The position numbers were made by a program, and so were the translations under genes. Positions 2 to 49,282 of a stretch of DNA of 64,000 nucleotides are shown piece by piece. The stretch comes from Strigamia acuminata (Eukaryota > Arthropoda > Chilopoda > Geophilomorpha > Linotaeniidae). Numbering within the stretch: the stretch's first letter is position 1; each line of letters opens with the position of its first letter. The DNA lies in assembly GCA_949358305.1 (NCBI GenBank), contig OX442319.1:9486001-9550000 (forward strand), read 5' to 3'. Under the pieces are notes generated by a model. The model was not told where the DNA came from. It did no database searches and saw nothing but the letters and a program-made list of their open reading frames with translations.

Positions 2-1768
2 CCTGACGTCGAATTAAGAGCCATGATGGCTAAAAAATTCGAGCTGCCAACAACAAATGTTTTAATAAAAGCATTTGCGGCTAAAATTGCGAAGCAATTA
101 GAATGTGATCCTCCAACGAGAGATGACATTATTGCGGCGCAAAAAGCAGACAAATTTTGCCAACATATTCGCAATTACTTGTTAAACAAGCAATATCCAA
201 GTTACATAGTAACTCGTCTTCAAAGAAGAAATTTTGAAAGACACGCGAGTACTTATCTCATTGAAGAAGATATGTTACTCCATTATCATCCTACCTCTAC
301 CGATGAATTAGGAGAGGATGGTAGGGCGCTTAAAGTTGTTGTGCCAAAGAAATTGATTTATAAAATCATATGGTTGATGCACGGACATCCACTGTCCGGC
401 CACCCAGGCATTGCGAGGACAATGTACAGAACTCGAAGAGTTTATACCTGGAAAGGTATGAAACGTGATATTACACGTTTTATTCAACATTGTCAAGGAT
501 GTCAGGCATGCAAGCCGAGATCAAAGACCGAAATTGAAGGCGCTCAAATTGGACCATTTGGACCATTTGACTGCCTCAGTGTGGATTTGTCTGGTCCCAA
601 ACCAAGAACCAGAAGAAACAATACCCACATTTGCATCATCGTAGATGTCGCTACGCATTGGCCAGAATTATTCCCAATGTGTAATCCAACGGCAATGAAA
701 GTTGCCAACACAATTTATCACTTATCAATAACTTTCGGATTTCCGAGACAAATCATAAGTGATAATGGACCACAATTTCGATCACAGGTCTATAAAGAAT
801 TTTGCAAAAAATTCGACATGTCGCGAACACCGACATCGATTTATCATCCACAAAGCAATCCTGTGGAGAGAACCAATCGAGATATTAAATATTTAGTTTC
901 GATTTATTTAGATATTCATGACCAATGGGATGAGTATCTACGCGAATTTGCATTCAGTTTGAGAACAACTGTAACAAGAGGCAGAGATTATTCTCCTGCT
1001 TTCTTAAATTTTTTCCGAGAATTAAGAATTCCTTGGGATCCAAGAATTCCGGAAGGAATTTTAGTCATTGACCCAAAAAATCCGCATTTATATGTTCAAA
1101 AATTAGAAGCAATAATTGCAGAGACGTATCAGCATATGATGTCTCACGTCTTAGATTTGAGACGCCGTGTCGAAGCTGAAAAATCAGACAAAAAATTCGA
1201 TAACTTCAGACAGAATGATTTAGTCTGGCGAGAGTCTCATATTCTCTCAAATGCCGCTAAAGGAATAGCAGCAGGCATTTCACCGAAAAGGAATGGGCCT
1301 TATGTAATTGTCAAAAGATTACAAGGAGGCGCCTTTCAACTTCGACGGCTGAGTGATAATAAAATTTATCCAGCTGTTCACGGCACTGAATTAATGCCGT
1401 ACTTTCCCGTTTTCAACCAAGAAATTTGGCTGGAAGGGGAGGAAGTGGGTCAAAAAACAAAAAATATTGTTAATACCTTGGATGATGTTGAATTATCCAA
1501 AATTCCTGTCGAAAACACGGAATCGAGTGAAAAATCGAAACTCAAAAATAACGAAGTCGATGAAATAAACAAGCGACTTGAAAATGTTTCTCTTGATGAA
1601 AATCTAGAAAAGGAAATGTTTTTAGAAAAAGAGAAAATTTCAAACAATGAAGAAAATAACTCATCTGACATTGGAGACGATGCTGATGACAATCTAAACA
1701 AGTTGGATTGTACTTCGCGAAAGTCAAAGTACAACTTGAGATCTCGCGTTCCGCGAGCCAAGACATAG
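2..1768 (+). CDS. pol: Pol polyprotein C-terminus (integrase), partial
   Basis: This is the C-terminal part of a Ty3/Gypsy Pol. The frame is open from base 2, so the protein is truncated by the window edge; the first methionine is at 23. Visible landmarks are an HHCC zinc-binding domain around 375-520 (HPLSGHPG, then CQGCQAC), and an integrase core with the first acidic residue in VDLSGP, the second in SDNGPQF and the glutamate in NPVERTN. A GPY-type module (NGPYVIV) is followed by an acidic, lysine-rich tail. The stop at 1766-1768 matches copy B, so this part is not broken. Integrase inserts reverse-transcribed cDNA into the host chromosome. Confidence 0.93.
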   Translation, partial: PDVELRAMMAKKFELPTTNVLIKAFAAKIAKQLECDPPTRDDIIAAQKADKFCQHIRNYLLNKQYPSYIVTRLQRRNFERHASTYLIEEDMLLHYHPTSTDELGEDGRALKVVVPKKLIYKIIWLMHGHPLSGHPGIARTMYRTRRVYTWKGMKRDITRFIQHCQGCQACKPRSKTEIEGAQIGPFGPFDCLSVDLSGPKPRTRRNNTHICIIVDVATHWPELFPMCNPTAMKVANTIYHLSITFGFPRQIISDNGPQFRSQVYKEFCKKFDMSRTPTSIYHPQSNPVERTNRDIKYLVSIYLDIHDQWDEYLREFAFSLRTTVTRGRDYSPAFLNFFRELRIPWDPRIPEGILVIDPKNPHLYVQKLEAIIAETYQHMMSHVLDLRRRVEAEKSDKKFDNFRQNDLVWRESHILSNAAKGIAAGISPKRNGPYVIVKRLQGGAFQLRRLSDNKIYPAVHGTELMPYFPVFNQEIWLEGEEVGQKTKNIVNTLDDVELSKIPVENTESSEKSKLKNNEVDEINKRLENVSLDENLEKEMFLEKEKISNNEENNSSDIGDDADDNLNKLDCTSRKSKYNLRSRVPRAKT

Positions 1769-2110
1769 CGTTGACTTTCACCTTTTGGGTTTACCCAAAA
1801 GATCCGAGAGAGCAATCTCGTGACGTCATTCGTAGTCCACACTCGAATGACAACGTTCACAATGCGTTATAATTTGTGACGTCATTCGGTGTCACCGAAA
1901 CAAGTTCGTTGCTCCAATCAACGAACTTAGCCACTTTTCCGATAAGTTTTGAAGTGGATGCATCAACTCCGATACCGCACGACAGTTTTTCTTGATTCAG
2001 CAAACTGTAAGTTATTTTTCTGAAAGAAAAATTCGATAAATATATTTAATATAGTTTATTAATTCTTTCTAGCCGAAAGAATTTCTTTTCCGACGCGAAA
2101 AAGAAAACGA
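1769..2110 (+). promoter_or_regulatory. Putative internal promoter and 5' leader of the element's third gene
   Basis: Two perfect CRE-type octamers TGACGTCA lie at 1821-1828 and 1877-1884, 56 bp apart, with a TTATAA-like stretch (1868-1873) just before the second. A candidate noncoding exon ends at 2006 with a strong donor (GTAAGT), and an intron of 66 bp (2007-2072) ends in a pyrimidine-rich CTTTCTAG acceptor. Copy B has both octamers at the same 56-bp spacing and an intron of the same length, although much of the surrounding sequence has diverged. Promoter activity is inferred from this conservation. Confidence 0.55.
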
Positions 2111-4649
2111 ATGGCAGACGACGAAGTCAACCTCCATGCGGACGAGGAAATACCGATGGAAGGAGCCGGTAACGATGCCCAATTATCGTTACAAGAGAGG
2201 GTAAATTATTAAAATAATTTTCACTTGGTGTTTCAGTCAGAAAAATTGAGAAAATTCACTTTTCCTGACTTCAAACACAAGCCGCTAAAAAATAAAAATG
2301 GCGGCTATAAAAGTCACGTGCTTCAAGCATGTGCGAAGGGAGTTGCCATGACAACCAACATCCCTTAGTGACTCACAGCCACAAGCGCTAAGCTTAAAAA
2401 ATATTTCAAATAAGAAATTATTTGTTTATTTTAAATAAACTAATTTATTTATTTTTCTTCGAATATAGATCGAGAGAGATCGAGAAACGCCATTCGCGCT
2501 TCCCGATCATGTGCCGACTCAGCACCCGCTGATTTTTCGAGCGGCGTTGCCCGAAAAAATCAGAAGACTGAAGACGGCAAACAACACGTGGTGGAAGTTG
2601 CGCCACGACTTCAGCAGATCAGCGCTGCAAGGATTTGGAGCAAGAGGCCGGTTCATCGAGCGCCTTCACGTCAACGGAGTTGACGAAATCGAGTGGACGC
2701 TCGACGAGAGCCCCCCAGGACCACTTGCAGCAGAGTTGTTGCACAACCAGTGGCCAGTGACGCCCCGAGAGCGTCACGAGCGCAGAAGAGCGCTAAAGAG
2801 TACCGGAATTAATTACGGTGCTCTCACCCAATTGAGGAAGAACCTCAAAACGACTCAACGCGAAGTCGTGAAACGGTACCGCAAGTCCGTTCGTGACGGG
2901 AACCCGCAATTTCCCGTCACACAAACCGAGCTCCACCAGTTGGCGCTCGCCGGGTGTTTCAACGATTTTCCGGGATTCTTCCCGTCGAAAGCACTCCGAG
3001 CTGCCGCAGCGCAGCTTCGCGTCGACGAAAATCGACAACTGGCTCACGAGGCAGATGAGCAAGCGCGTTGCGCTCTCCCTTTTTATCGAGAAGATGAAAT
3101 TCCGGCCCCAGCGGCCATCAATCCTCCGCCGCAAGACGAGGATTTGAGGGTGGGGCAACTCCCTCCGCCGGTTCCAGTCAGACCAATGTTCCGCGAATCG
3201 AGCCGCGATCGAGAGGAGCGACAGAGGCGATCGCGCCCGTATTCGACTGACGTGCAGCCGTCACGCCCGCAGTCGCGACGAGGACGGACACCAGAGTCGT
3301 TTGGCTCGTCGTCTTCGCTGAGTTTCGAATCGGACTCCACAATCCAGTCCGCCAGAAGTAGCCGAACCGCCTCCACGTTCAAAGTGGACAACCCGGCTAC
3401 TCCATACGCCATGAGACGTGTTGTCGGTGATATTTCTCCCGACTGTAGCGTGCCTGTACCTGGACACGCTAGCCGCTTGCCCGAACAAGGATATGTTTCC
3501 CGCTTGCCGGCTGGAGTTAGCAACCTGCAACTCCGGCCATTTTTTAGTGAGTCATTCGGCCCACAATGGACCTGCTACGAGCAGCAACCCATTAGAGCGC
3601 AGCAGGAAGTGCTCCAAAAGCTGGACGCATACCAAAGCGCCCAGATCGCCGAGTCGCAGAAGGACTGGCAGAGACTAGCTGAAAGGCTAGAAGTCTCCGA
3701 CATCAATACCATTGATGATCCCCGCCTGATGGATTTTCAGCGTCAACTAATTCCGGGGATGACTAGGGTGTTGTACCCTGGTGTTCTTCCTTCGCCAGGA
3801 CAGGCGTTAGCGGCCATTACGTACCTTTGGACCGCGCCGATGGGCCTGTCGGAGAAGAAAGTCGAGCTGTGGTACCACCTCAGGCTCGACCCGCCTACGA
3901 TCTTAGCCGAGCTAATAAAGCAAGTCGTAGCAAACGGTGAGACCGAAGAAGAGGCCGCCGTTCGGTTGCGAACCGAGTGGTCCTTTGCGAAGGCCACGGC
4001 GCGAATAGCCGGAAGACCACCGCTTCCAGTTACAAGCGCCACAGCAGCTGCGTCACTGGCTGTTTTCCAGTCGGCCCAAGAAGGCGCTGGATGCTCGTTT
4101 TGGCAAGAGAACCCGAGAAGTTCTCCAACTCCTGCCGGAGTTCAACGGGTAGTCGAAACCCGTCAGCTCCCCGGTGTGGGTCGAGCGCAGGGACGAGGCG
4201 TCACATCCTCGTCAACCTCCGCACCCGCGTTGGTTTTCTTGGGCTCGCCGAGCCATTTCGACGATGCCACGACGGAAGACTCACGTCCACCGCCGCCGCC
4301 GCCGCCAGCCAAGCCGGAGACGAAGGTCAAGCCGCTGAAGAAGGAGTCGGCTTTCAAGACCCTGATGCGCCTGTATCCGCACTTCTATTTGACGCCGGAT
4401 ACGCAAACACTGCTTAGCAACAATCACAAGTTGTCGAGGCAGGTGTTTATGTGGCTCGAGGACCACATCCGGGTGTTAAGCCCACCATCAGTGCTCCACG
4501 ATCGACTCCTGAGAGCACGATTGGCGCCAGAGGATCCCATAGAGTTTGCGGCGCTAGGATTTTTCAACCGAGCGAACTCGGCGAGAATCATCCAGGTTTG
4601 GCTTCATGTCAACCCTGGAATGGTCTCCGGACCAAACGAAATTAAGTAG
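2111..4649 (+). CDS. Third ORF of the LTR element (unknown function), spliced, copy A
   Basis: I do not recognise this protein. The model joins 2111-2200 (30 codons from ATG) to 2469-4649 through a phase-0 intron (2201-2468, GTAAAT...ATATAG), giving about 756 residues. Upstream of 2469 the frame closes exactly at the acceptor, which supports the splice. The protein is basic and tryptophan-containing at its N-terminus, has a serine/arginine-rich low-complexity middle, a glutamine-rich helical part, a polyproline run and a conserved C-terminal block. I see no signal peptide, membrane segment or zinc knuckle, so it is not an obvious Env. GC content is clearly higher than in the neighbouring pol. 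The C-terminus is abnormal: a deletion fuses it to LTR sequence, which supplies the stop. Confidence 0.75.
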
Positions 4650-5506: not shown

Positions 5507-5637
5507 ATAAATTCTTTCTTCTGCACAATATTCGCAGAATGAAGCATCAAAACAACTAAATCAACGGCTCCCCTACGAAATAATCCAGACAATATACCAC
5601 TGAAAGCTCCAAAACTTTCAAAAACATATTCTTTCAA
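5447..5637 (+). repeat. 191-bp perfect direct repeat, left copy
   Basis: Read base by base, this is identical to 47958-48148 in the same orientation. Sequence identity ends abruptly at both edges. It is part of the G-family gene. See the finding on the 42.5-kb block. Confidence 0.95.
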
Positions 5638-34650: not shown

Positions 34651-34654
34651 CCTT

Positions 34655-35613
34655 TGCTGCGATCCGGGTTTTTATCCACTTAATTTCTAATAAATTAAGC
34701 AGAAACCGCAGGTGAATGCTATAAAAGACTTACAATCGGCGGCCTTAAATTATCTAGGGGTTAAGTTTAAGGAAAAGAAATAAAAAGACAGTTTTATTAA
34801 TAAAAATCACAAATATGTATTTATTCGTTTAAATTACAATGACTAGTTAAAAATATCACAATGGCGACAAGTCGCGAAATGAAATGAGCGGGAACAATGG
34901 AAGGGCTTGCAACGACTGTTGCAAGCTACAAAGCGCTAAAATGGCGCTTAAACAACACACAGTTGTTAGGCGAAGGCGAATTGTCTTCGTTTGCTGAACT
35001 CACGAACGATGGTCGAAGACGATGGTTCTCGTGGGCTCCTTCTACGGCTCGTGCGACGGCTCGGCGGCGGTGGTTGACGGCTGTAGGCGTCCGGCTCTCG
35101 TACGATGGCGGTGGCTGTCGTTCGCGCGGCAGCGACGGCGATGGTTCACGATCGTCGGGAAACTTCTTCTTCTCGTTTGCTGGAATTAGCTACGGCTAAT
35201 TCAAGCAGAATTGCTGGCTTTGTGCTTTGGGTGGCACAAAGATAGCAGGTGAAACTGAGTTACAACGGTCCTCTATCAATACGTATTGTCGGAGCAGATA
35301 TCGCAGTGATGTTGAGGTTGTTGTTGTATTTTTCAGAGTCCCGATTTGAGCCAAGACGCGAGCCCAGCACGCTTCAATATTGCGCAGAAAACCTGCGCAC
35401 TTAGCTCAAATGGGTGCAACTAGTGGTTATTACACCATATTGCACCATAACGGCTAATAACCGTTTTCACCCCGGACAACCTGGGGTGATATGTGCCTAG
35501 AGAGGATTTCTCCCCTCGGTCACATGATCTGACTTGGCGTGTGCCACAGTCAAATTAATTAGAAGATAATTAATTTAATCTTCTAAGTTGGTGAATATTT
35601 TGAGATCACCACA
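34655..35613 (-). repeat. 3' LTR of copy B
   Basis: 959 bp, apparently identical to the 5' LTR. An AATAAA-containing stretch lies toward the element-distal side. It borders the remaining part of the G gene, which reads in the same direction. Confidence 0.95.
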
Positions 35614-35628
35614 CATCCCCCCATTTAA
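35614..35628 (-). promoter_or_regulatory. Polypurine tract for plus-strand DNA priming
   Basis: On the minus strand the bases next to the 3' LTR read AAATGGGGGGATGTG. A G-run in this position primes second-strand synthesis in LTR elements. Confidence 0.75.
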
Positions 35629-35665
35629 GACGAATCTTACATGGAGAGAAAATGAACGAACCAAT

Positions 35666-38305
35666 TTATGATTCGTCCATGGTCTGAGTTCGCTCAGGCG
35701 TCAACGGGCGCATCATATCCGTGGTGTCGTCCCTCGGGTTGGACCGCTCGTTAACCGTACACAGGTCGCGACCTGCGTTTGGTCCGGAGACCATTCCAGG
35801 GTTGACATGAAGCCAAACCTGGATGATTCTCGCCGAGTTCGCTCGGTTGAAAAATCCTAGCGCCGCAAACTCTATGGGATCCTCTGGCGCCAATCGTGCT
35901 CTCAGGAGTCGATCGTGGAGCACTGATGGTGGGCTTAACACCCGGATGTGGTCCTCGAGCCACATAAACACCTGCCTCGACAACTTGTGGTTGTTGCTAA
36001 GCAGTGTTCGCGTATCCGGCGTCAAATAGAAGTGCGGATACAGGCGCATCAGGGTCTTGAAAGCCGACTCTTTTTTCAGCGGCTTGACCTTCGTCTCCGG
36101 CTTGGCTGGCGGCGGCGGCGGACGTGAGTCTTCCGTCGTGGCATCGTCAAAATGGCACTGCGGGCCCAAGAAAACCAACGCGGGTGCGGAGGTTGACGAG
36201 GGTGTGACGCCTCGTCCCGGTGCTCGACCCACACCGGGGAGCTGACGGGTTTCGACTACCCGTTGAACTCCGGCTGGAGTTTGAGAACTTCCGGCGTTCT
36301 CTGGCCAAAATGAACATCCAGCGCCCTCTTGGGCCGACTGGAAAACAGCCAGTGACGCAGCTGCTGTGGCGCTTGTAACTGGAAGCGGTGGTCTTCCGGT
36401 CATTCGCGCCGTGGCCTTCGCAAAGGACCACTCGGTTCGCAACCGAACGGCGGCCTCTTCTTCGGTCTCACCGTTTGCTACGACTTGCTTTATTAGCTCG
36501 GCTAAGATCGTAGGCGGGTCGAGCCTGAGGTGGTACCACAGCTCGACTTTCTTCTCCGACAGGCCCATCGGCGCGGTCCAAAGGTACGTAATGGCCGCTA
36601 ACGCCTGTCCTGGCGAAGGAAGAACACCAGGGTACAACACCCTAGTCATCCCCGGAATTAGCTGACGCTGAAAATCCATCAGACGGGGATCATCAATGGT
36701 ATTGATGTCGGAGACTTCTAGCCTTTCAGCTAGTCTCTGCCAGTCCTTCTGCGACTCGGCGATCTGGGCGCTTTGGTATGCGTCCAGCTTCTGGAGCACT
36801 TCCTGCTGCGCTCTAATGGGTTGCTGCTCGTAGCAGGTCCATTGTGGGCCGAACGACTCACTGAAAAATGGCCGGAGTTGCAGGTTGCTAACTCCAGCCG
36901 GCAAGCGGGAAACATAACCTTGTTCGGGCAAGCGGCTAGCGTGTCCAGGTACAGGCACGCTACAGTCGGGAGAAATATCACCGACGACACGTCTCATGGC
37001 GTATGGAGTAGCCGGGTTGTCCACTTTGAACGTGGAGGCGGTTCGGCTACTTCGGGCGGACTTAATTGTGGAGTCCGATTCGAAACTCAGCGAAGACGAC
37101 GAGCCAAACGACTCTGGTGTCCGTCCTCGTCGCGACTGCGGGCGTGATGGCTGCGCGTCAGTCGAATATGGGCGTGATCGCCTCTGACGTTCCTCTCGAT
37201 CGCGGCTTGATTCGCGGAACATCGGTCGGACTGGAACCGGCGGAGGGAGTTGCCCCACCCTCAAATCCTCGTCTTGCGGCGGAGGATTGATGGCCGCTGG
37301 GGCCGGAATTCCATCTTCTTGATAAAAAGGGAGAGCGCAACGCGCTTGCTCCTCTGCCTCGTGTTCTCGAGCCAGTTGTCGATTTTCGTCGACGCGAAGC
37401 TGCACCGCGGCAGCTCGGAGTGCTTTGGACGGGAAAAATCCCGGAAAATCGTTAAAACACCCGGCGAGCGCCAACTGGTGGAGCTCGGTTTGTGTGACGG
37501 GAAGTTGTGGGTTCCCGTCACGAACGGATTTGCGATACCGTTTAACGACTTCGCGTTGTGTCGTCTTGAGGTTCTTCCTCAATTGGGTTAGAGCACCGTA
37601 ATTAATTCCGGTACTCTTTAGCGCTCTTCTGCGCTCGTGACGCTCTCGTGGCGTCACTGGCCACTGGTTGTGCAGCAACTCTGCTGCAAGCGGTCCTGGG
37701 GGGCTCTCGTCGAGCGTCCACTCGATTTCGTCGACACCGTCCACGTGAAGGCGCTCGATGAATCTTCCTTTTGCACCAAATCCTTGCAGCGCTGATCTGC
37801 TGAAGTCGTGGCGCAACTTCCACCAGGTATTGTTTGCCGTCTTCAGTCTTCTGATTTTTTCGGGCAATGCCGCTCGAAAAATCAGCGGGTGCTGAGTCGG
37901 CACGTGATCGGGAAGCGCGAATGGTGTTTCTCGATCCCTCTCGATCTATATTCGAAGAAAAATAAATAAATTAGTTTATTTAAAAATAAACAAATAATTT
38001 CTTATTTGAAATATTTTTTAAGCTTAGCGCTTGTGGCTGTGAGTCACTAAGGGATGTTGGTTGTCATGGCAACTCCCTTCGCACATGCTTGAAGCACGTG
38101 ACTTTTATAGCCGCCATTTTTATTTTTTAGCGGCTTGTGTTTGAAGTCAGGAAAAGTGAAATTACTCAATTTTTCTGACTTAAACACTTGGTAAAAATTT
38201 ATTCTAATAATTTACCCGTTGTTGAAGCGTCAATTGAACGTCTTCATTTGCCCCTTCCATGGGCATTTCTCCGTCCGCCTGGAGTTGGATCGCTTCCTCG
38301 TCCAT
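35666..38305 (-). CDS. Third ORF of the LTR element (unknown function), spliced, intact copy B
   Basis: Model: 38305-38216 (30 codons from ATG) joined to 37945-35666 by a phase-0 intron (GTAAAT...ATATAG), about 789 residues. The frame before 37945 closes at the acceptor. Exon 1 is exactly 90 bp in both copies, though its sequence differs much more between copies than exon 2 or pol does. The protein has a basic N-terminal region (WWKLRHDF, RKNLKTTQ), a Ser/Arg-rich middle, a helical glutamine-rich block and a conserved C-terminus. No membrane span, signal peptide or zinc knuckle is visible, so neither Env nor a second Gag is supported. Indels relative to copy A are multiples of three, which suggests protein-level selection. 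Confidence 0.8.
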
Positions 38306-38647
38306 TCTCTTTCGTTTTCCGGTAATTTCGGAAATTCTTTCGTCTTGAAAGAGAAATAATACATAAATCTTATGTTTTATCAAATTTTTCTTACAGAAAA
38401 ATTACTTACGATCAGGTTGTCGAACTATTCGGGTCGTAACGTAGGCGATGCGATGCATACACTCTCGAAACTTTTGAAAAAGTGACTAAGTTCGTTGATT
38501 GCAAACACGAACTTGGATTAGAGACGCTTTGTGACGTCACTAATTATAACGTATGATTAACGTTGTCATTCGAGTGGGTACTACGAATGACGTCACGAGA
38601 TTGCTTTCTCGGATCTTTTGGGTAAACCCAAAAGGTGAAAGACAACA
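38306..38647 (-). promoter_or_regulatory. Putative internal promoter and 5' intron for the third ORF, copy B
   Basis: TGACGTCA occurs at 38532-38539 and 38588-38595 (56 bp apart, as in copy A). A 5' intron of 66 bp (38409-38344, GTAAGT...TTTCAAG) precedes the ATG exon. Conservation of these sites amid diverged sequence is the main evidence. Confidence 0.55.
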
Positions 38648-41600
38648 CTATGTCTTGGCTCGCGGAACGCGAGATCTCAAGTTGTACTTTGACTTTCGCG
38701 AAGTACAATCCAACTTGTTTAGATTGTCATCAGCATCGTCTCCAATGTCAGATGAGTTATATACTTCATTGTTTGAAATTTTCTCTTTTTCTAAAAACAT
38801 TTCCTTTTCTAGATTTTCATCAAGAGAAACATTTTCAAGTCGCTGGTTTATTTCATCGACTTCGTTATTTTTGAGTTTCGATTTTTTACTCGATTCCGTG
38901 TTTTCGACAGGAATTTTGGATAATTTAGCATCATCCAAGGTATTAACAATATTCTTTGTTTTTTGACCCACTTCCTCCCCTTCCAGCCAAATTTCTTGGT
39001 TGAAAACGGGAAAGTACGGCATTAATTCAGTGCCGTGAACAGCTGGATAAATTTTATTATCACTCAGCCGTCGAAGTTGAAAGGCGCCTCCTTGTAACCT
39101 TTTGATAATTACATAAGGCCCATTCCTTTTCGGTGAAATGCCTGCTGCTATTCCTTTAGCGGCATTTGAGAGAATATGAGACTCTCGCCAGACTAAATCA
39201 TTTTGTCTGAAGTTGTCGAATTTCTTATCTGATTTTTCAGCTTCGACACGGCGTCTCAAATCTAAGACGTGAGACATCATATGCTGATACGTCTCTGCAA
39301 TTATTGTTTCTAATTTCTGAACATATAAATGCGGATTTTTTGGATCAATGACTAAAATTCCTTCCGGAATTCTTGGATCCCAAGGAATTCTTAATTCTCG
39401 GAAAAAATTTAAGAAAGCAGGAGAATAATCTCTGCCTCTTGTTACAGTTGTTCTCAAACTGAATGCAAATTCGCGTAGATACTCATCCCATTGGTCATGA
39501 ATATCTAAATAAATCGAAACTAAATATTTAATATCTCGATTGGTTCTCTCCACAGGATTGCTTTGTGGATGATAAATCGATGTCGGTGTTCGCGACATGT
39601 CGAATTTTTTGCAAAATTCTTTATAGACCTGTGATCGAAATTGTGGTCCATTATCACTTATGATTTGTCTCGGAAATCCGAAAGTCATTGATAAGTGATA
39701 AATTGTGTTGGCAACTTTTATTGCCGTTGGATTACACATTGGAAATAATTCGGGCCAATGTGTAGCGACATCTACGATGACGCAAATGTGGGTATTGTTT
39801 TTTCTGGTTCTTGGTTTGGGACCAGACAAATCCACACTGAGGCAGTCAAATGGTCCAAATGGTCCAATTTGAGCGCCTTCAATTTCGGTCTTTGATCTCG
39901 GCTTACATGCCTGACATCCTTGACAATGTTGAATAAAACGTGTAATATCACGTTTCATACCTTTCCAGGTATAAACTCTTCGAGTTCGGTACATTGTCCT
40001 CGCAATGCCTGGGTGGCCGGACAGTGGATGTCCGTGCATCAACCAAATGATTTTATAAATCAATTTTCTTGGCACAACAACTTTAAGTGCCCTACCATCC
40101 TCTCCCAATTCATCGGTGGAGGTAGGATGATAATGGAGTAGCATATCTTCTTCAATGAGATAAGTACTCGCGTGTCTTTCAAAGTTTCTTCTTTGAAGAC
40201 GAGTTACTATGTAACTTGGATATTGCTTGTTTAGCAAGTAATTGCGAATATGTTGGCAAAATTCGTCTGCTTTTTGCGCTGCAATAATGTCATCTCTCGT
40301 TGGAGGATCACATTCTAATTGCTTCGCAATTTTAGCTGCAAATGCTTTAATTAAAACATTTGTTGTTGGCAGCTCGAATTTTTTAGCCATCATAGCTCTT
40401 AATTCGACGTCAGGGGTTCCTGACGGATCATGCATGTTAATACAAAAATTAATTAATGCTTGATCGTCGTCATTAACTATTATTGACTTGGGTAATTCGT
40501 TCAATTTTCCCATTTGCCAACTTCGGCAAGGAGATGGACAATATGATAATAAATCATCATTATCGCCATCGTCTTCTGGTTCGTCAGGTGCGCTGACAGG
40601 TGCACGTGACAATGCGTCTGCTATTACATTCAGCGGACCTTTGACGTATTGTATTTCGAACGAATACGCCATTAGCTCCATTTGCCAACGAGCTAATCTG
40701 CCCGACGGGTCAGATAACGACATCAACCACTTAAGTGCTTGGTGATCCGTTTGTACAGTGAATGTAGTGTACTCTAAGTATGGGCGAAATTTGCGTAATC
40801 CCCATACTACTGCGAGACATTCTAATTCTGTCACAGTATAATTCTTTTCAGCGGGTTGCAAGCTTCTGCTTGCATACACGCATGGCATTTCGACTTCTTG
40901 GCCATCCACAATTTTCTTTTGTGTAAGGGCTGCACCCAACCCTTGTTTACTGGCGTCAGTATGAACAATAAATGGCATGTACAAGTCAGGCATCTTCATT
41001 GTTTCAGCATTCGTAAGCAGGTCTTTTATTGCGTCGAATGCTGCTTGATGATGCAGTTCCCAATCGAACTCCGCATCTTTCTTCAAGAGTGGCCTTAGTG
41101 GTTCTGCCACTGTGGCCAAATTCTTGATTAGGCGGTGAAAGAAATTCACCATGCCTAGAAATCTTTGTAATTCCTTAAGATTGGTAGGAGCAGGAAATTG
41201 CGTAATTGCAGCGACTTTTTTAGGGTCTACTGCAAGTCCTTCTACTCCTACTTTGTAGCCTAGAAAAATTAATTCCTTTCTACAGAGATGCGTCTTGCCA
41301 GGGTGCGCATGTAAATTAGCTTCTGCCAATTTTTTAAACACTATATCTAAATGTTTAATGTGTTCTTCGAACGATTTGGATACAACAATTATGTCATCCA
41401 AATATGCCCATGCAAATTTTCTGTAAACGTCACCCAAAACTTTTTCCATTAATTCTTGGAAGGTAGTTGGTGCGTTTACTAATCCGAAAGGCATGACTAA
41501 AAACATTAGTCTTCCCATTGGGCTCCAGAAGGCAGTTTTTTCTCTGTCTTCAGGGCGCAATTCTATCTGCCAATATCCCTTGGTCAGATCTATAGTACTG

Positions 41601-42901
41601 ACCCACTCGAATTCTCCGATTTCTCGCAGAATTTCCTCAATTGTTGGCATTTGAGGTGGGTTGTACTTAGTATGTGTATTGATGGGGCGAAAATCAATGC
41701 ACAAGCGTGGGTCGTTTCCTGGTCGCATGACTAGGACTGGCCTCATTCCGTAATCGCCTTCAGCTTTGACGACTACGCCTTTGTCAATCATGTCTTGACA
41801 AAGTTGTCTGATTATTTCCCTTTTTTGAGGGTTTATGCTCTTAAAGGGGACACGGATGGGTTTCTCCGTGTCAAGCTCAATTTTGTGCTTAACCAGGTGT
41901 GTTTTACCTGGATCTTTAGAAATAATCCTTTTATGTTTGGATAACATCTTTTCTAATAATTTGGATTGCTCCAAATTTAAGTTAGCTTCTTTGACTAACT
42001 TTTGGATGAAATTCTCTTCATCAATTTTGCTTTGAGTTACACTTGCAGCGTAAGCTTTTGCAAAGGTCACAAATGAGGAATCGGGTTCCTCTATTTTCTC
42101 CAAATAACGATCCAGCAACGCTTGTGGAATGTAGGGTAAATCTGCATCCACAGGTTGCGTGAAATTCCAAGACATCGTCTGTGGATTAGGTTGGATTTTT
42201 AATTTATTCATAAAATCGCAACCCAATAGTACCATTGGATACTTATTTGGTATTACGATGAACGGATGACGTAACGTGCCATGTGTCCATCGAAATGAAA
42301 GATGAATGGTTCCATCTGGAGTGACTTCTTCACTTGCCGTCGTGACTCTGACACCAGGTCCGATAGGTCGTAGATATTTTTCTAGACCTAATTGATTAAT
42401 AACTGAAGTGGCTAGGAAGCTTTTATTTGCTCCTGAGTCCAACATTCCGGTTATTACACCTTTTAACGTTTCTAACTTTAACGTCGGAAGGTCTTGGCTG
42501 TTTGGTATTCCAGCCACTTTGCACTCAAACTTGCGCAATTTATGAGGAATTGTAATTGGAGGCTCCAAAGGCAATTCATCTAATAACTCATTGGTATCAA
42601 GAGTTGTAGTTGCAAATAACTTAATGCATTCCTCAATTCCAGGTGTCTCTGGAACTGAGCTTGGTCTATCGTCTTTAACTTCGACTTTATCTTGAATATT
42701 GGAAGTGTCTTCTTCAGTCGGGGTTTCGCCGACAATCTCCTTTTTTACATCAAGAGATCCATTTTCTTTTAGTTCAGTTTGACGAATTAATTCATCAATA
42801 GCTTCTCCAACATCTTCCATTATCTTCAGATTTTCATTCTCTGATTCCGATTTCGGAGGTGACGCAGCGTCCACTAGACCTGATGGATCTGCGTCTACAA
42901 G
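38648..42901 (-). CDS. pol: Pol polyprotein (protease, reverse transcriptase, RNase H, integrase)
   Basis: About 1408 codons are open downstream of a GTG at 42874, and the frame extends up to the frameshift site at 42901. An aspartic protease motif DSGA is at residues 146-149. RT includes the catalytic YLDD at about 491-494. RNase H starts near TDAS (about 639-642). An HHCC zinc domain, the DDE integrase core and a GPY module follow, then a charged tail. The order PR-RT-RH-IN defines Ty3/Gypsy. Pol has no ATG of its own at the start and is expected to be made as a Gag-Pol fusion by -1 frameshifting. All catalytic landmarks I can see are present. Confidence 0.95.
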   Translation of the reverse strand, partial: LVDADPSGLVDAASPPKSESENENLKIMEDVGEAIDELIRQTELKENGSLDVKKEIVGETPTEEDTSNIQDKVEVKDDRPSSVPETPGIEECIKLFATTTLDTNELLDELPLEPPITIPHKLRKFECKVAGIPNSQDLPTLKLETLKGVITGMLDSGANKSFLATSVINQLGLEKYLRPIGPGVRVTTASEEVTPDGTIHLSFRWTHGTLRHPFIVIPNKYPMVLLGCDFMNKLKIQPNPQTMSWNFTQPVDADLPYIPQALLDRYLEKIEEPDSSFVTFAKAYAASVTQSKIDEENFIQKLVKEANLNLEQSKLLEKMLSKHKRIISKDPGKTHLVKHKIELDTEKPIRVPFKSINPQKREIIRQLCQDMIDKGVVVKAEGDYGMRPVLVMRPGNDPRLCIDFRPINTHTKYNPPQMPTIEEILREIGEFEWVSTIDLTKGYWQIELRPEDREKTAFWSPMGRLMFLVMPFGLVNAPTTFQELMEKVLGDVYRKFAWAYLDDIIVVSKSFEEHIKHLDIVFKKLAEANLHAHPGKTHLCRKELIFLGYKVGVEGLAVDPKKVAAITQFPAPTNLKELQRFLGMVNFFHRLIKNLATVAEPLRPLLKKDAEFDWELHHQAAFDAIKDLLTNAETMKMPDLYMPFIVHTDASKQGLGAALTQKKIVDGQEVEMPCVYASRSLQPAEKNYTVTELECLAVVWGLRKFRPYLEYTTFTVQTDHQALKWLMSLSDPSGRLARWQMELMAYSFEIQYVKGPLNVIADALSRAPVSAPDEPEDDGDNDDLLSYCPSPCRSWQMGKLNELPKSIIVNDDDQALINFCINMHDPSGTPDVELRAMMAKKFELPTTNVLIKAFAAKIAKQLECDPPTRDDIIAAQKADEFCQHIRNYLLNKQYPSYIVTRLQRRNFERHASTYLIEEDMLLHYHPTSTDELGEDGRALKVVVPRKLIYKIIWLMHGHPLSGHPGIARTMYRTRRVYTWKGMKRDITRFIQHCQGCQACKPRSKTEIEGAQIGPFGPFDCLSVDLSGPKPRTRKNNTHICVIVDVATHWPELFPMCNPTAIKVANTIYHLSMTFGFPRQIISDNGPQFRSQVYKEFCKKFDMSRTPTSIYHPQSNPVERTNRDIKYLVSIYLDIHDQWDEYLREFAFSLRTTVTRGRDYSPAFLNFFRELRIPWDPRIPEGILVIDPKNPHLYVQKLETIIAETYQHMMSHVLDLRRRVEAEKSDKKFDNFRQNDLVWRESHILSNAAKGIAAGISPKRNGPYVIIKRLQGGAFQLRRLSDNKIYPAVHGTELMPYFPVFNQEIWLEGEEVGQKTKNIVNTLDDAKLSKIPVENTESSKKSKLKNNEVDEINQRLENVSLDENLEKEMFLEKEKISNNEVYNSSDIGDDADDNLNKLDCTSRKSKYNLRSRVPRAKT

Positions 42902-45900
42902 TTTTTTCGAAACATGTCAGTTATGATCTTGACTGCTTTTTCAAACTCAGCTGTTGACACTGGTTTGTCCTTTTTAGAGGAAGGGCAGTCTTTTTGCCAA
43001 TGCCCTAATTTTTTGCATAAATTGCATGGATCAGTGGCAGGCGATTTCTTTTTCGTTGCTGCTGGCGAGGCAGAACGAGAACGAGCGTCAGACCGGCGCT
43101 CTGGCGACACCGCGGGTGATTTTGAATTCCTTTCGGTATTCACCTTTGATGCGTCAAATGAAACATTTTTTGGTTTCATTTTTGGCTTCCATTTGCCTGC
43201 AACGGGGTTATTTTTTGCTAACAGCGCCGCTGCTTTGGCTAATAAAGCCAACGTCTCATCTCCTGCTTCCTCCTCCTCTTCAGCTTCTTCAGCTTCAGAC
43301 GACGGAGTTTCAGCTCCAGTTATATTTGCATGTAACTTAGGAACTGAATGAGGATTTTTGACGTCCTTTTTGGAAGATTCTTTTTTCGAACTCTTCTCAT
43401 CCACTTCGTCTAGAAAGTCTTCGTAACTAGGTGGCTGCAACAATTTCAAACCATTAAAGGTTTCATTGTTTTGCTCAGCGAGTCTTTTCTCTCGCTTTAA
43501 GTACGCTGACCTTTCGCTTTCTGTAAGGTAAGCTTTGTACTTTTCGTCAATGCGCAATTGATTGACTTCCATGAACTCGTTTAACTCGGAGAATTTCCCC
43601 GGGTCGGGAGCGTCCGACATCATCAGAATATTTTTACTATATTCTGTGAGGCCAGCTCTAAACTGATCATCTGCTGTTGCATCAGTAACAGCATGTGGCA
43701 TTCTGCCAAGCAGATTCTCTGCTCTTAGCATGTACGAATGTAAGCTTTCGCCTTTTCGTTGCTTAAGACATCTCCAAAGCGTCTTGATGTCTTCGCTCGA
43801 TTCACCAAATTTAAACATAAATTGTTTAACGAAGTCATCCCACTTCGTGAAGTCTTTCCTGCGAAACCACTCCTTGACACCGCCAACTAGTATTCTTGGT
43901 ACTAGATGGGCCAATGCACCTTCACAGCTAAAACTGTGAACTTTGCCTAGTTCGAATATTTCCAGCAAGAGGTTTGACCCTGCTTGCCAATTTCCATTAT
44001 AGGCATGTGGGATAACTCGATCCCATCTAATGAACTTTTCATCTGTTGTTTGATGAGTCCATTTATCAGAAGTAAATTCACTTATTTTTTGCAAAATAAT
44101 TTTATCCCTTCTGCTTTTTCGCTGTTGTTGAGCATTTTGCCTCAACAACTGGTCAATCTCATCTTTCGTGTAAAAATCGGGTCTTTGAGTTCTACTACGT
44201 GTTCTGTGACGAGATCGCCCTCTCACACTGGGACGTGAGGAATCTGTATCTGACGCAGATTCATGATTCGGATTTGGCGGCGGATCAGGGTCCGGAGGAT
44301 CGTCGCCATCTGGCGGACGACGGTCTCCATTTGGTGGTCCCCTTCCATTTCGATTGCCATTCGAATTGTGGTCACGTGAGTGGCCACCTCCATGTCCATC
44401 TGAACTGTCTCCACCTGGTGGGTCACCACCTGGCGGATTTCCACGGTATCTCGGCCCATCACGGATGTCGTTGTGACAATCTCGTTTTGGTGAGCCTTCT
44501 CGCGGATTATCGTGTGACCGTCCACGATCGTGTGGTTTCTCACGTTCTTTATTCTTTTTCGCCAGCAATCCAATTAATTGGTCACTATTGCTAAAGAATC
44601 TATCCGAATTTTGCGGAACTTTTGGGGAATGATATTCGGTCGGGTCTGGTTGTCGCTTTCTCTTTTTGCGACTGTGATGACTATTACGGCTTCCACGACT
44701 ACTGCGTGAGTCATCGCTGTCAGTCCAACTTGATTGTCGACTGACTTTTGGTTTAGCTGATGTTAAATCAATCAACTCAGGTGATTTGGAAGCACCTTTT
44801 TGCAAAACTGGGGCTGGCTTTGCAAAATTATCTTCGCCACAAACGTCTTGTACTTTTTGTACGACTACTGCAAAGTTTTCTTGTACCGTCAATAGATCTG
44901 CGCGAAGAATTTCGTTTTCACGAGCTTGCGCAGCTAAGTCGGCACGTAATAACTGCTCTGCAGTGCTTAGACTTTTGGCGGCTTGACCAGCATCAATTAC
45001 AGACTGCTGTCGAGCGAGAAATACTTCGTTTTCTCGTTGTGCTAATCTCTTAGCTCTTGCTGCTTGTTCTACAGCATAATTCTCGTAATTTCGAGAACAT
45101 GAGGGGATTATTTCCCTCGCTCGAACTGGGGCGGTTAGTTCGGCAGTCTTTAAATTTGTGTTGGCTTCTCGCAAATTTGCGTTGGCCAATCTCAAATTTT
45201 CATTAGCAATTTCTAAATCTTTTTGGGCTTGATTTAGTTGCTCGAGCCTTTGTTGTTGCTCTTCGTCAGTAATTAGCCAGGAAGCTTTTTCCTGCTCTAA
45301 TTGTAACAACTTAACATGGTCATTCGCACGTTGTTGTTTTAGTTCGGCATTTTGCTGATGCATTTCTGCACGCATTCGCTCGAACTCTGCTTGCAAGCTT
45401 GTTCTGACGATTTCAACGTCTTTTTGACTTTGTTTGCGAACCATAGCTTTGTGGATTTGTTCCACAGTCATTTCGCTAGTGACTTTTACTCCCTCGAGCC
45501 TAGCTTGCTCACGGAGTGCGTCCATCATGGTAACACGCACGGGAGAATGAGAAACTTCCATATTGGAGTTCTCAGAATCTTGTTGTGCTGCACCTTGAAC
45601 CGGTGATGAATTCAGCGAGTGCTCTGCACTTGATGATTGAATTCGTAAATTCAAATCATCGTTTTGCGACTTGGAACGGCCACTTCCAGTTGGATTGTTT
45701 AAGTCCAACTGGCCGCTGGGCGGGGATGGCTGTTGTCGCTCCAACGCTTGCGTGAATTCATTCACGATTAACTGTGCCGAGTTACAGTTAGCTGTTTGAT
45801 CCATGGCTTCAAACAATTCTTGTGACTCAGTCACTTCTTGATCCACGACTGGTAGATCGATCGCCACTCGTCTCTTCGCCGGCCTTCCTCTCGGTCTCTT

Positions 45901-45918
45901 CTCTGAAGGAGTCGCCAT
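42895..45918 (-). CDS. gag: Gag polyprotein
   Basis: This frame has 1007 codons from ATG at 45918, which is long for a Ty3/Gypsy Gag. It has an acidic start, a coiled-coil region rich in Glu/Gln/Leu (about residues 140-370), an Arg/Asp/Gly-rich low-complexity stretch (RDGPRYRGNPPGG), and a capsid-like domain (WDRVIPHAY...FKFGESSEDIKTLWR, about 650-790). A single CCHC zinc knuckle (CNLCKKLGHWQKDC) lies near the C-terminus. The capsid domain and knuckle are typical of Gag, which packages the element RNA. The stop TAG at 42895-42897 lies just after the slippery site. Confidence 0.95.
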   Translation of the reverse strand: MATPSEKRPRGRPAKRRVAIDLPVVDQEVTESQELFEAMDQTANCNSAQLIVNEFTQALERQQPSPPSGQLDLNNPTGSGRSKSQNDDLNLRIQSSSAEHSLNSSPVQGAAQQDSENSNMEVSHSPVRVTMMDALREQARLEGVKVTSEMTVEQIHKAMVRKQSQKDVEIVRTSLQAEFERMRAEMHQQNAELKQQRANDHVKLLQLEQEKASWLITDEEQQQRLEQLNQAQKDLEIANENLRLANANLREANTNLKTAELTAPVRAREIIPSCSRNYENYAVEQAARAKRLAQRENEVFLARQQSVIDAGQAAKSLSTAEQLLRADLAAQARENEILRADLLTVQENFAVVVQKVQDVCGEDNFAKPAPVLQKGASKSPELIDLTSAKPKVSRQSSWTDSDDSRSSRGSRNSHHSRKKRKRQPDPTEYHSPKVPQNSDRFFSNSDQLIGLLAKKNKEREKPHDRGRSHDNPREGSPKRDCHNDIRDGPRYRGNPPGGDPPGGDSSDGHGGGHSRDHNSNGNRNGRGPPNGDRRPPDGDDPPDPDPPPNPNHESASDTDSSRPSVRGRSRHRTRSRTQRPDFYTKDEIDQLLRQNAQQQRKSRRDKIILQKISEFTSDKWTHQTTDEKFIRWDRVIPHAYNGNWQAGSNLLLEIFELGKVHSFSCEGALAHLVPRILVGGVKEWFRRKDFTKWDDFVKQFMFKFGESSEDIKTLWRCLKQRKGESLHSYMLRAENLLGRMPHAVTDATADDQFRAGLTEYSKNILMMSDAPDPGKFSELNEFMEVNQLRIDEKYKAYLTESERSAYLKREKRLAEQNNETFNGLKLLQPPSYEDFLDEVDEKSSKKESSKKDVKNPHSVPKLHANITGAETPSSEAEEAEEEEEAGDETLALLAKAAALLAKNNPVAGKWKPKMKPKNVSFDASKVNTERNSKSPAVSPERRSDARSRSASPAATKKKSPATDPCNLCKKLGHWQKDCPSSKKDKPVSTAEFEKAVKIITDMFRKNL
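42901..42907 (-). promoter_or_regulatory. -1 ribosomal frameshift slippery site A_AAA_AAC
   Basis: On the minus strand the gag codons CGA AAA AAC precede TTG TAG. The heptamer A AAA AAC is a classic retroviral -1 slip sequence, and slipping one base back here enters the open pol frame. I did not fold the downstream RNA. Confidence 0.85.
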
Positions 45919-46009
45919 TTTTCAATGAGGATAAAGAAAGGATAGAGAAGAAAGATAAGCAAGATAAAAATGGCGGGTAAATTTTAACTAACAAAGTTAT
46001 ACAATGACT

Positions 46010-46027
46010 ATCCCGGACGGGCCCCCA
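46010..46027 (-). promoter_or_regulatory. Primer binding site, tRNA-Pro type
   Basis: Two bases from the 5' LTR the minus strand reads TGGGGGCCCGTCCGGGAT. This matches the known tRNA-Pro primer site (as in murine leukaemia virus) at 17 of 18 positions. Confidence 0.8.
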
Positions 46028-46029
46028 CG

Positions 46030-46988
46030 TGCTGCGATCCGGGTTTTTATCCACTTAATTTCTAATAAATTAAGCAGAAACCGCAGGTGAATGCTATAAA
46101 AGACTTACAATCGGCGGCCTTAAATTATCTAGGGGTTAAGTTTAAGGAAAAGAAATAAAAAGACAGTTTTATTAATAAAAATCACAAATATGTATTTATT
46201 CGTTTAAATTACAATGACTAGTTAAAAATATCACAATGGCGACAAGTCGCGAAATGAAATGAGCGGGAACAATGGAAGGGCTTGCAACGACTGTTGCAAG
46301 CTACAAAGCGCTAAAATGGCGCTTAAACAACACACAGTTGTTAGGCGAAGGCGAATTGTCTTCGTTTGCTGAACTCACGAACGATGGTCGAAGACGATGG
46401 TTCTCGTGGGCTCCTTCTACGGCTCGTGCGACGGCTCGGCGGCGGTGGTTGACGGCTGTAGGCGTCCGGCTCTCGTACGATGGCGGTGGCTGTCGTTCGC
46501 GCGGCAGCGACGGCGATGGTTCACGATCGTCGGGAAACTTCTTCTTCTCGTTTGCTGGAATTAGCTACGGCTAATTCAAGCAGAATTGCTGGCTTTGTGC
46601 TTTGGGTGGCACAAAGATAGCAGGTGAAACTGAGTTACAACGGTCCTCTATCAATACGTATTGTCGGAGCAGATATCGCAGTGATGTTGAGGTTGTTGTT
46701 GTATTTTTCAGAGTCCCGATTTGAGCCAAGACGCGAGCCCAGCACGCTTCAATATTGCGCAGAAAACCTGCGCACTTAGCTCAAATGGGTGCAACTAGTG
46801 GTTATTACACCATATTGCACCATAACGGCTAATAACCGTTTTCACCCCGGACAACCTGGGGTGATATGTGCCTAGAGAGGATTTCTCCCCTCGGTCACAT
46901 GATCTGACTTGGCGTGTGCCACAGTCAAATTAATTAGAAGATAATTAATTTAATCTTCTAAGTTGGTGAATATTTTGAGATCACCACA
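46030..46988 (-). repeat. 5' LTR of copy B
   Basis: 959 bp, TG...CA, apparently identical to 34655-35613. It would drive transcription on the minus strand. Confidence 0.95.
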
Positions 46989-47127
46989 CCTTGATCATCG
47001 AAATGTCTTGTAGTGTTTCTGGCGTGAATGTATATCGAATAAAACTTGTTTCCGGCGTCGTTTTCAGCTTTTTTACTGGACTGCATCCACCTCCTTCGCT
47101 CATTTCGCCGAGGAATTTAGAACTAGT
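46989..47127 (-). pseudogene. First coding exon of the disrupted G gene
   Basis: An AATTCCAG acceptor ends at 47128 and the exon starts at 47127. The ATG is at 47103-47101, followed by 38 codons (MSEGGGCSPVKKLKTTPE...) that reach the LTR insertion at 46989. The frame rejoins the 430-codon frame at 34650 when one copy of the CCTT duplication is removed. The lysine-rich start could act as a nuclear signal, but that is a guess. Confidence 0.78.
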
Positions 47128-47752: not shown

Positions 47753-48148
47753 TTATAAAATATTAAATTGGCGCTTGAAGCGAGATATTTCATCTTCCGA
47801 TTTCAAACACCGATTCATGAATTTGTCCACCTCGCCCTTTTCATTCTTCCCTACGAAATGATCACAAACATCCCTTCCTTTTTCCCTCGCAAATCTCTCC
47901 ATAAACTCCCCAACATCCTTTTCGCACAAAACACTATGTTTAACAAAAACATCAAACAAATCCCATTGCTTTACCATCAACAACTCAGCACATTGGTTTA
48001 TTCCGTACTTCGAATGAATAAATTCTTTCTTCTGCACAATATTCGCAGAATGAAGCATCAAAACAACTAAATCAACGGCTCCCCTACGAAATAATCCAGA
48101 CAATATACCACTGAAAGCTCCAAAACTTTCAAAAACATATTCTTTCAA
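47753..48148 (-). pseudogene. G-family gene fragment, copy 3 (C-terminal part)
   Basis: The minus-strand frame from about 48148 to the stop at 47753 encodes the C-terminal third of the family (LKEYVFESFGAF, VQKKEFIHSKYG, VLCEKDVGEFMERF) and a longer lysine-rich tail than the copy at 33347. The N-terminal part is absent: at 48148 the sequence switches to transposon DNA. The part at 47958-48148 is identical to 5447-5637. Confidence 0.8.
47958..48148 (+). repeat. 191-bp perfect direct repeat, right copy
   Basis: Identical to 5447-5637 in the same orientation, with abrupt ends. Confidence 0.95.
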
Positions 48149-49057
48149 AAAAATAAACCTGCACATTTAACTCTTAAAACACCCACAGATAATCGCCCGT
48201 CAGTAGAAGACAATAATATCCGCTTCGAGGAATTGCCAGACGATCACGATTTGGATCTAATAACTGATCCATCAGAGCCTGTGTGGATAGCAAACCTAAC
48301 AATGGCAGATAAGAGAACGATCACGGACAATCTCTGGCTAAATCAAGAGGTTTTAAATCACTCATCATTGTTATTGAAACAACAATATCCAGAAATAGTC
48401 GGTTTGGTAAACTTACATCGATTCGGGAACGCAAACCTTCCATTAGATGTCCCGTATATCCTTGACATGTTACCCAATGAAGGCATTTTCGTTCAAATGT
48501 TAAACATTGGGAATCATTTTATCACGGTCGCGGGATATTTTACTCAACGAGCCATCGATTTAGATGTATATAATAGCCTAAATATCCTCTCACTCCCACC
48601 AAAGGTAGTATCACTGGTAAGCTCACAATTTAAGAATCACCCATGTAAACTGATCAACTTTAGGTTAATCAAAGTAACTAAACAAATTAATGGTGACTGC
48701 GGGTTGCACGCCGTAGCAAATGCCCATTTTGCTTGCGAAGGGTCAAACCCAGGAGAAGTGCAACTAAACCATACTCTGTTGCGAACACATTTAGCTGATT
48801 GCATCGATTATCAATCTATCACTACATTTCCAACGGTTAAAAATTGTGACTTAAAAGTATTAGCAACTGTCCGGAAAAAAATTGTATATTGCTCGTGCCG
48901 TAAACCATTCGGAGGTCCGGAAATGGTGCAATGCGATAAGTGTGAAGAGTGGTTTCATAAAGGATGTCTCAAGGACAGTAGTGATGTTTTAGCGGATGAA
49001 AAGTGGTATTGCGAATATAGGTGCAAGAAACCAGTGCCACTAATTGAATTGTTATAA
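48149..49057 (+). CDS. Ulp1-like (C48) cysteine protease with C-terminal PHD finger, 5'-truncated
   Basis: The frame is open across the junction at 48148 and has no ATG nearby, so the beginning is missing. A C48-like protease fold is suggested by GNHFITVAGY (His), VYNSL at the Asp/Asn position, and KQINGDCGLHAVAN (Gln and catalytic Cys), in the order His-Asp/Asn-Gln-Cys. After it comes a PHD finger: CSCRKPFGGPEMVQCDKCEEWFHKGC and a final C...C pair. Ulp1-type proteases cleave ubiquitin-like modifiers, and several eukaryotic DNA transposon groups carry them. The terminal repeat just downstream fits a transposon origin. The transposase itself is not present. Confidence 0.7.
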   Translation, partial: KNKPAHLTLKTPTDNRPSVEDNNIRFEELPDDHDLDLITDPSEPVWIANLTMADKRTITDNLWLNQEVLNHSSLLLKQQYPEIVGLVNLHRFGNANLPLDVPYILDMLPNEGIFVQMLNIGNHFITVAGYFTQRAIDLDVYNSLNILSLPPKVVSLVSSQFKNHPCKLINFRLIKVTKQINGDCGLHAVANAHFACEGSNPGEVQLNHTLLRTHLADCIDYQSITTFPTVKNCDLKVLATVRKKIVYCSCRKPFGGPEMVQCDKCEEWFHKGCLKDSSDVLADEKWYCEYRCKKPVPLIELL

Positions 49058-49282
49058 TCATTGTTTAAAATAATTAAAATAAAATAAAATAAAAATAAAA
49101 GTTTCTAAAAACTTAACTCTTAATAAACAGATAAAAATAATTATATGGAATTTACATCTTTCTGTGGAACCTACAGAAATTCTGCCGTTTTAACCCGTGG
49201 TTATTTCGGCAGAATTTCTGCCGTTTTAACCCGTGGTTATTTCGGCAGAATTTCTGCCGAAATAACGCTTGCCTTTTTAAAT
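48149..49282 (+). mobile_element. DNA transposon, 3' half with long terminal inverted repeat
   Basis: It contains the protease/PHD gene and, from about 49125 to 49272, the inverted counterpart of the terminal repeat at about 4880-5045, including the ACCCGTGGTTATTTCGGCAG subterminal repeats. TTTTTAAAT at 49274-49282 matches 4869-4877. The 5' part of the element is missing here but present at 4878-5446. Confidence 0.6.

What the first reader, a model, noticed from the sequence alone, without database searches (positions are those of the whole stretch)
38216..38647. A retrotransposon carrying its own promoter-driven, intron-containing third gene
Seen directly: in both copies (1769-4649 and 35666-38647) the segment between pol and the large third frame has two TGACGTCA octamers exactly 56 bp apart and a 66-bp GT-AG intron upstream of an ATG. 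A 90-bp exon then ends at a GTAAAT donor, and a second exon opens at an ATATAG acceptor in phase 0. The leader and exon 1 have diverged strongly while pol and exon 2 are nearly identical, yet promoter-type sites, intron length and phase are kept. Known: forward introns are normally lost from retroelements unless the genomic RNA escapes splicing. Inferred: the third gene was acquired with its own regulation, or is expressed from a subgenomic spliced RNA.
Basis: partly seen in the sequence, partly recalled or inferred. Interest (0 to 1): 0.88.

Follow-up and report, generated by a model that had tools for sequence, protein, structure and literature searches.

The report
Retrotransposon whose third gene has introns
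A jumping element in an arthropod-like genome carries a third gene interrupted by two introns, and a few genomic copies that lack one or both introns exactly at the splice sites show that its RNA is really spliced and then copied back into DNA.

Summary
The window's complete copy is a young Ty3/gypsy-type LTR retrotransposon (LTR pair identical, 4-bp target duplication). Its third gene has a leader, a 66-bp intron, a 90-bp coding exon, a 270-bp intron and a 759-codon exon.

The rest of the genome supplies the test. Junction searches found six copies lacking intron 2 and five lacking intron 1 at the predicted sites: seven copies in two subfamilies and three combinations, against 142 places keeping the intron-2 acceptor. 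Two of the seven were read end to end. Both are LTR-gag-pol-ORF3-LTR insertions with identical LTR pairs and their own target duplications. The introns were therefore spliced from full-length LTR-started RNA that was then reverse-transcribed and integrated.

Splicing is thus no evidence for an internal promoter, which stays untested. Intron 2 is strongly folded, though the whole element is. Its last 208 bp are identical between two subfamily copies whose exon 2 differs by 3.5%.

ORF3 found no relative. My proposal, inferred only, is that it regulates unspliced genomic RNA as CERV does in C. elegans Cer1. New variant of a known kind.

The parts
46030..46988 (-). 5' LTR of copy B (TG...CA), identical to the 3' LTR; target duplication AAGG at 46989-46992
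42895..45921 (-). gag open frame with CCHC knuckle (Pfam score just under cut-off)
42901..42907 (-). A AAA AAC heptamer in gag frame, a -1 frameshift-type site (motif recalled)
   Evidence: sequence
38648..42916 (-). pol open frame: RT, RNase H, integrase above Pfam cut-offs; protease match below cut-off
38410..38647 (-). leader of the third gene, strongly folded (z -6.15)
38588..38595 (-). octamer TGACGTCA 1
38532..38539 (-). octamer TGACGTCA 2, 56 bp on
38344..38409 (-). intron 1, 66 bp; exactly missing in 5 genomic copies
38216..38305 (-). ORF3 exon 1, ATG plus 29 codons
37946..38215 (-). intron 2, 270 bp, folded (z -6.76); last 208 bp identical in copies A and B; exactly missing in 6 genomic copies
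35666..37945 (-). ORF3 exon 2, 759 codons and stop
34655..35613 (-). 3' LTR of copy B; target duplication AAGG at 34651-34654
2..1768 (+). 3' part of pol, copy A
1769..2006 (+). leader of copy A with octamers 1821-1828 and 1877-1884
2007..2072 (+). intron 1 of copy A
2111..2200 (+). exon 1 of copy A
2201..2468 (+). intron 2 of copy A
2469..4649 (+). exon 2 of copy A, truncated; LTR remnant ends at 4670

Best explanation
A Ty3/gypsy-type LTR retrotransposon has a third gene (ORF3) that can only be made from spliced RNA. SHOWN: both introns are removed in vivo from full-length LTR-started RNA; some of this spliced RNA is reverse-transcribed and integrated, leaving full-length copies without introns; about 96% of the copies counted keep intron 2 and so come from unspliced RNA (or from duplication of such copies). 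INFERRED (about 0.35): ORF3 is a nuclear regulator, made from spliced RNA, that protects or exports the unspliced genome, working like CERV of Cer1 or Rev of HIV-1, with the folded and conserved intron 2 as the signal that marks an RNA as unspliced. How the ORF3 AUG, 8.7 kb from the LTR start, reaches ribosomes (internal promoter or a long splice from the 5' leader) is open. The confidence given is for the statement with its marks: about 0.95 for the shown part.
For: Exact intron-2 junctions at 2 B-type and 4 A-type places, control 0; exact intron-1 junctions at 1 and 4 places, control 0; 142 places with the intron-2 acceptor. The two copies fetched whole hold LTR, gag, pol, ORF3 and LTR, LTR pairs 0/960 and 0/984 different (one gap column in the second), 4-bp duplications AACG and ACTT. 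ORF3 open only after splicing. dN/dS 0.12 in exon 2, 0.14 in pol, 0.19 in exon 1. Intron 2 z -6.76; 0/208 against 75/2164 in exon 2, p 0.0015; changes avoid stems, 13 of 36, p 0.004. Cer1 CERV: spliced third gene required for export of unspliced RNA.
Against: No RNA data. ORF3 has no relative and no usable model, so its function rests on position and analogy. Folding is not special to intron 2: pol tiles average z -4.5 and gag -3.9 against -0.8 outside the element, and single pol and LTR windows reach -9 to -11. Stem changes show no two-sided compensation, and 8 of 13 do not keep the pair. Among 12 A-type copies the conservation of the intron-2 core over exon 2 is weak (13/216 against 33/300, p 0.06). 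Copies without intron 2 do integrate, so intron 2 is not strictly needed for packaging.
Confidence: 0.6

Rival explanations
1. ORF3 has its own promoter at the TGACGTCA pair and is expressed as a short spliced mRNA, as foamy viruses express Tas and Bet; it may regulate transcription rather than export. Not exclusive with splicing of full-length RNA.
For: Octamer pair kept at 56 bp in A, B and a third more diverged relative; 310 such pairs with 40-56 base spacers genome-wide against 4 for the reversed control, though other repeat families contribute. The AUG is far from the LTR start. None of 60 copies whose upstream was read shows a long splice to ORF3. Foamy precedent.
Against: No transcript start known. 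Splicing occurs in LTR-started RNA. The octamer-to-octamer stretch also folds. The leader has one upstream ATG in both types.
Confidence: 0.4
2. ORF3 is a host gene captured with its introns.
For: It is the only intron-bearing gene of the element; no relative in other elements was found.
Against: No cellular relative among the best 7998 candidates of 5.8 billion proteins at E 0.01. Capture through RNA would remove introns. No ORF3 without pol upstream in 60 copies read, but a host paralogue was not searched for apart from these.
Confidence: 0.08
3. The intron-less copies arose by DNA deletion or recombination, not by splicing.
For: Exchange of blocks between lineages does occur in this family.
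Against: Loss is exact at the predicted sites in 6 and 5 cases, two subfamilies, three combinations; the two copies read in full are fresh insertions.
Confidence: 0.02
4. ORF3 is an envelope-like protein made from spliced RNA, as in errantiviruses.
For: Position after pol and need for splicing.
Against: No transmembrane-like stretch (highest 19-residue hydropathy 1.0), no Pfam match.
Confidence: 0.03

Closest known systems
Cer1 / CERV of C. elegans (PMC10309623: abstract, passages, sections 9 and 15; PMC3315495: passages)
   Same: Ty3/gypsy element; large third frame between pol and 3' LTR; made from spliced RNA; lineage-specific protein without known relatives; most genomic RNA must skip good splice sites.
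   Different: CERV has five exons, the first three in the gag frame, so its splicing spans pol; here both introns lie after pol and exon 1 starts there. No sequence relation found. CERV function is shown by mutants, ORF3 function is not. SL1 was not found in this genome.
Foamy virus Tas/Bet and delta-HFV (PMC1224871, PMC3185757: passages)
   Same: Regulatory gene near the 3' end with an intron; pregenomic RNA spliced there (301 bp) gives reverse-transcribed proviruses.
   Different: Foamy viruses have env and a proven internal promoter; removing their intron breaks Tas, whereas here removal opens ORF3. Unrelated genes.
Errantivirus env (PMC12992720: passages)
   Same: Arthropod Ty3/gypsy element, third gene from spliced RNA.
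   Different: env-F is spliced from exons at or before gag; ORF3 has no transmembrane-like stretch.
Ogre elements of plants (PMC6317226: passages)
   Same: Ty3/gypsy element keeping an intron that only part of the transcripts splice.
   Different: The Ogre intron lies between gag-pro and RT; here the introns are in a third gene.
MDG1-group sORF1/sORF2 (PMC11952523: passages)
   Same: Accessory genes in insect LTR elements.
   Different: Short frames, sORF2 a transmembrane protein; no introns described in the passages seen.

Membership tests
Ty3/gypsy LTR retrotransposons | pol with RT, RNase H, then integrase | tested here: met
   Pfam matches above cut-off in this order; pol relatives named gypsy-type
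Ty3/gypsy LTR retrotransposons | LTRs TG...CA and short target duplication | tested here: met
   959-bp LTRs, AAGG
Ty3/gypsy LTR retrotransposons | tRNA primer binding site | not tested
   Sequence after the 5' LTR was printed but not matched to a tRNA
Cer1/CERV lineage | third gene after pol made from spliced RNA | tested here: met
Cer1/CERV lineage | first exons shared with gag | tested here: inconclusive
   Exon 1 has its own ATG after pol and spliced copies keep gag and pol in line; the 5' end of the ORF3 mRNA is unknown
Cer1/CERV lineage | sequence relation to CERV | tested here: not met
   No protein at E 0.01 among 7998 scored candidates; no direct comparison with CERV was made
Cer1/CERV lineage | nuclear protein required for export of unspliced RNA | not testable with these tools
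   needs cells
Foamy-virus-like internal promoter system | active promoter before the third gene | not testable with these tools
   only the octamer pair is known
Foamy-virus-like internal promoter system | integrated copies of spliced pregenome | tested here: met
Foamy-virus-like internal promoter system | env gene | tested here: not met
   no third frame other than ORF3 between pol and LTR; ORF3 not env-like
Errantiviruses | env with transmembrane segment | tested here: not met

The most novel reading that the evidence does not exclude
A 'complex' Ty3 retroelement of arthropods: a promoter after pol makes a spliced regulator that acts on the folded, conserved intron 2, which only unspliced genomes carry, so that intron 2 licenses export or favours packaging; the roughly 4% of intron-2-less integrants are licence failures or, as with delta-HFV, a silencing form.
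Probability: 0.2. Interest if true: 0.82.

Novelty: new variant of a known kind. Interest (0 to 1): 0.62.

Why it matters
How a retroelement keeps forward introns although every round passes through RNA is an old puzzle. Here the losses can be counted in one genome (6 intron-2-less copies found by pattern against 142 places that keep the acceptor, two of the six shown to be fresh full-length insertions), which gives a natural measure of how often spliced genomes are copied and integrated. If intron 2 is the licence, it offers an RNA element and a partner protein to test in an arthropod. The four searches of the paper library aimed at such elements brought Cer1, insect env and MDG1 accessory genes, and in what I saw of them no third gene with introns of its own after pol.

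Tried and rejected
ORF3 homology: no hit in the protein database, Pfam, PDB sequences, viral contigs. The AlphaFold model from two near-identical sequences is useless (pLDDT 34, pTM 0.20), so no fold search was run. Rfam on the element: one match far below its cut-off.

SL trans-splicing was considered as a route to ORF3: canonical SL1 not found within 2 mismatches; the Rfam SL1 search is uninformative because its controls did not ring. The host looks arthropod, so this was dropped. 'Intron 2 is uniquely folded' was rejected: the whole element is structured. 'Leader and exon 1 simply evolve faster' was set aside: dS 1.62 in exon 1 against 0.11 in exon 2 points to a block exchanged between older lineages.

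Full report
WHAT WAS CLAIMED AND WHAT IS THERE. The finding describes two copies of a retrotransposon whose third gene has two introns and an octamer pair before it. The coordinates check out. Copy B is a complete element on the minus strand, 34655-46988: LTRs identical over 960 bp, target duplication AAGG, gag, a probable -1 frameshift heptamer, pol with Ty3/gypsy domains, then leader, intron 1, exon 1, intron 2, exon 2. Copy A enters the window inside pol and has lost the end of ORF3 and most of its 3' LTR.

THE INTRONS ARE REALLY SPLICED. The window lies in a 237.5-Mb genome that can be searched. A 32-base exon 1-exon 2 junction found 2 places for the B type and the A-type junction found 4; intron-1 junctions were found at 1 place for B and 4 for A, all within 3 mismatches, reversed controls 0. 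The acceptor with intron 2 kept has 142 places within 3 mismatches, so intron-2-less copies are 6 of 148, about 4%; more diverged copies escape both counts.

I read 61 copies around the third gene: 58 after removing duplicate fetches, two more, one more. 54 keep both introns; 2 lack only intron 2 (L039, L088); 4 lack both (L040, L081, L087, L089); 1 lacks only intron 1 (L090, read to about 15 bp before the end of intron 2). Five of the seven were fetched because a junction search pointed at them, so 7 of 61 is not a rate; of the other 56 copies 2 lack introns. In 60 of 61 the sequence upstream is pol as usual; L090 was fetched only from within the leader.

THE SPLICED RNA WAS A FULL GENOME. 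For two of the seven (C3:27486194 and C8:11172853) I fetched the surroundings. Both align through gag, pol and ORF3 with small indels only, apart from the missing introns, and both have two LTRs. Their LTR pairs show 0/960 and 0/984 differences (one gap column in the second), and duplications AACG and ACTT flank them. The LTRs of the two copies differ from each other at 59/958 and from the window's at 76/946 and 84/955. These are recent insertions of different descent. L081 and L087 are nearest to different unspliced copies. The other five intron-less copies were not read to their LTRs.

WHAT THIS SAYS ABOUT THE PROMOTER. Splicing demonstrably occurs in LTR-started RNA, so it is no evidence for an internal promoter. 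Still, the ORF3 AUG lies 8.7 kb from the LTR start, so some device must present it. The octamer pair is not random: 310 pairs with 40-56 base spacers genome-wide against 4 in the control, though other repeats with other spacers contribute. It recurs at the same 56 bp in a third, more diverged relative, of which only 64 bases were seen; 31 of 48 inner bases match A, and 0 of 20,000 shuffles do as well. The inner stretch folds in all three, so an RNA role competes with a promoter role.

CONSERVATION. A against B: exon 1 dS 1.62, dN 0.31 (30 codons); exon 2 dS 0.109, dN 0.013 (720 codons); pol dS 0.071, dN 0.010 (588 codons). The leader-exon 1 block thus has a much older A-B split than its surroundings and was probably exchanged by template switching. 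Across that split intron length, exon length, phase and octamer spacing were kept with no indel. The intron 2 core lies in the younger part yet has 0/208 differences against 75/2164 in exon 2 (p 0.0015). Within 12 A-type copies the contrast is weaker (13/216 against 33/300 variable sites, p 0.06). Intron 2 folds at z -6.76, the leader at -6.15 in B and -5.27 in A. Of 36 distinct changes in intron 2 (two of them deletions) 13 fall in stems, where 59% of positions lie (p 0.004), but 8 of the 13 do not keep the pair and none is compensated on the other side. Against over-reading: pol and gag tiles average z -4.5 and -3.9 while 178 windows outside the element average -0.8, and single windows in pol and LTR reach -9 to -11. 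Folding is a property of the whole element.

WHAT ORF3 MAY BE. 789 residues, about equal acidic and basic content, basic clusters, one NES-like pattern, no transmembrane-like stretch, no leucine-zipper pattern, no relatives found, no usable model. Envelope is unlikely. The best analogy is CERV of Cer1, a lineage-specific protein from a spliced mRNA required for export of unspliced genomic RNA (PMC10309623: abstract, passages, sections 9 and 15; PMC3315495: passages). The reverse-transcribed spliced genome has a precedent in the delta-HFV provirus of foamy virus, a 301-bp loss by splicing of pregenomic RNA (PMC1224871: passages). I file the element with neither.

HOST. Not named. A neighbouring ariadne-2-type gene has its best named match in the centipede Strigamia maritima, 57%, followed by other arthropods. 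SL1 was not found.

VERDICT. Observation confirmed. Splicing, and reverse transcription of spliced full-length RNA, established from genomic copies. Internal promoter open. Function inferred. A new variant of a known kind.

Noticed in passing
34655-46988: The whole element is unusually foldable in the sense strand (pol tiles mean z -4.5, gag -3.9; 178 windows outside the element -0.8), like genome-scale ordered RNA structure (recalled term).
   Followed up: partly
42901-42907 (- strand): A AAA AAC heptamer at the gag-pol overlap, a classical -1 frameshift site (recalled).
   Followed up: no
G000:C1:3793996-3794059 and C1:10110240-10110416: A more diverged relative keeps two octamers 56 bp apart; elsewhere successive octamer pairs follow each other at about 56 bp. 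Letters of these places could not be fetched further.
   Followed up: partly
5447-5637 and 47958-48148; 4893-5037 and 49120-49258: Another repeat lies beside both element copies in the window (191 bp identical; 145 bp at 94%).
   Followed up: no
48095-49057: Open frame with a C-terminal PHD finger (Pfam), perhaps from a DNA transposon.
   Followed up: no
15395-21278: Repeated units with 33-bp tandem arrays and open frames through them.
   Followed up: no
L004, L005, L020; L055: Copies with a B-type leader but diverged exon 2, and one with an A-type leader and a B-like exon 2 start, suggest mosaic elements by template switching.
   Followed up: partly
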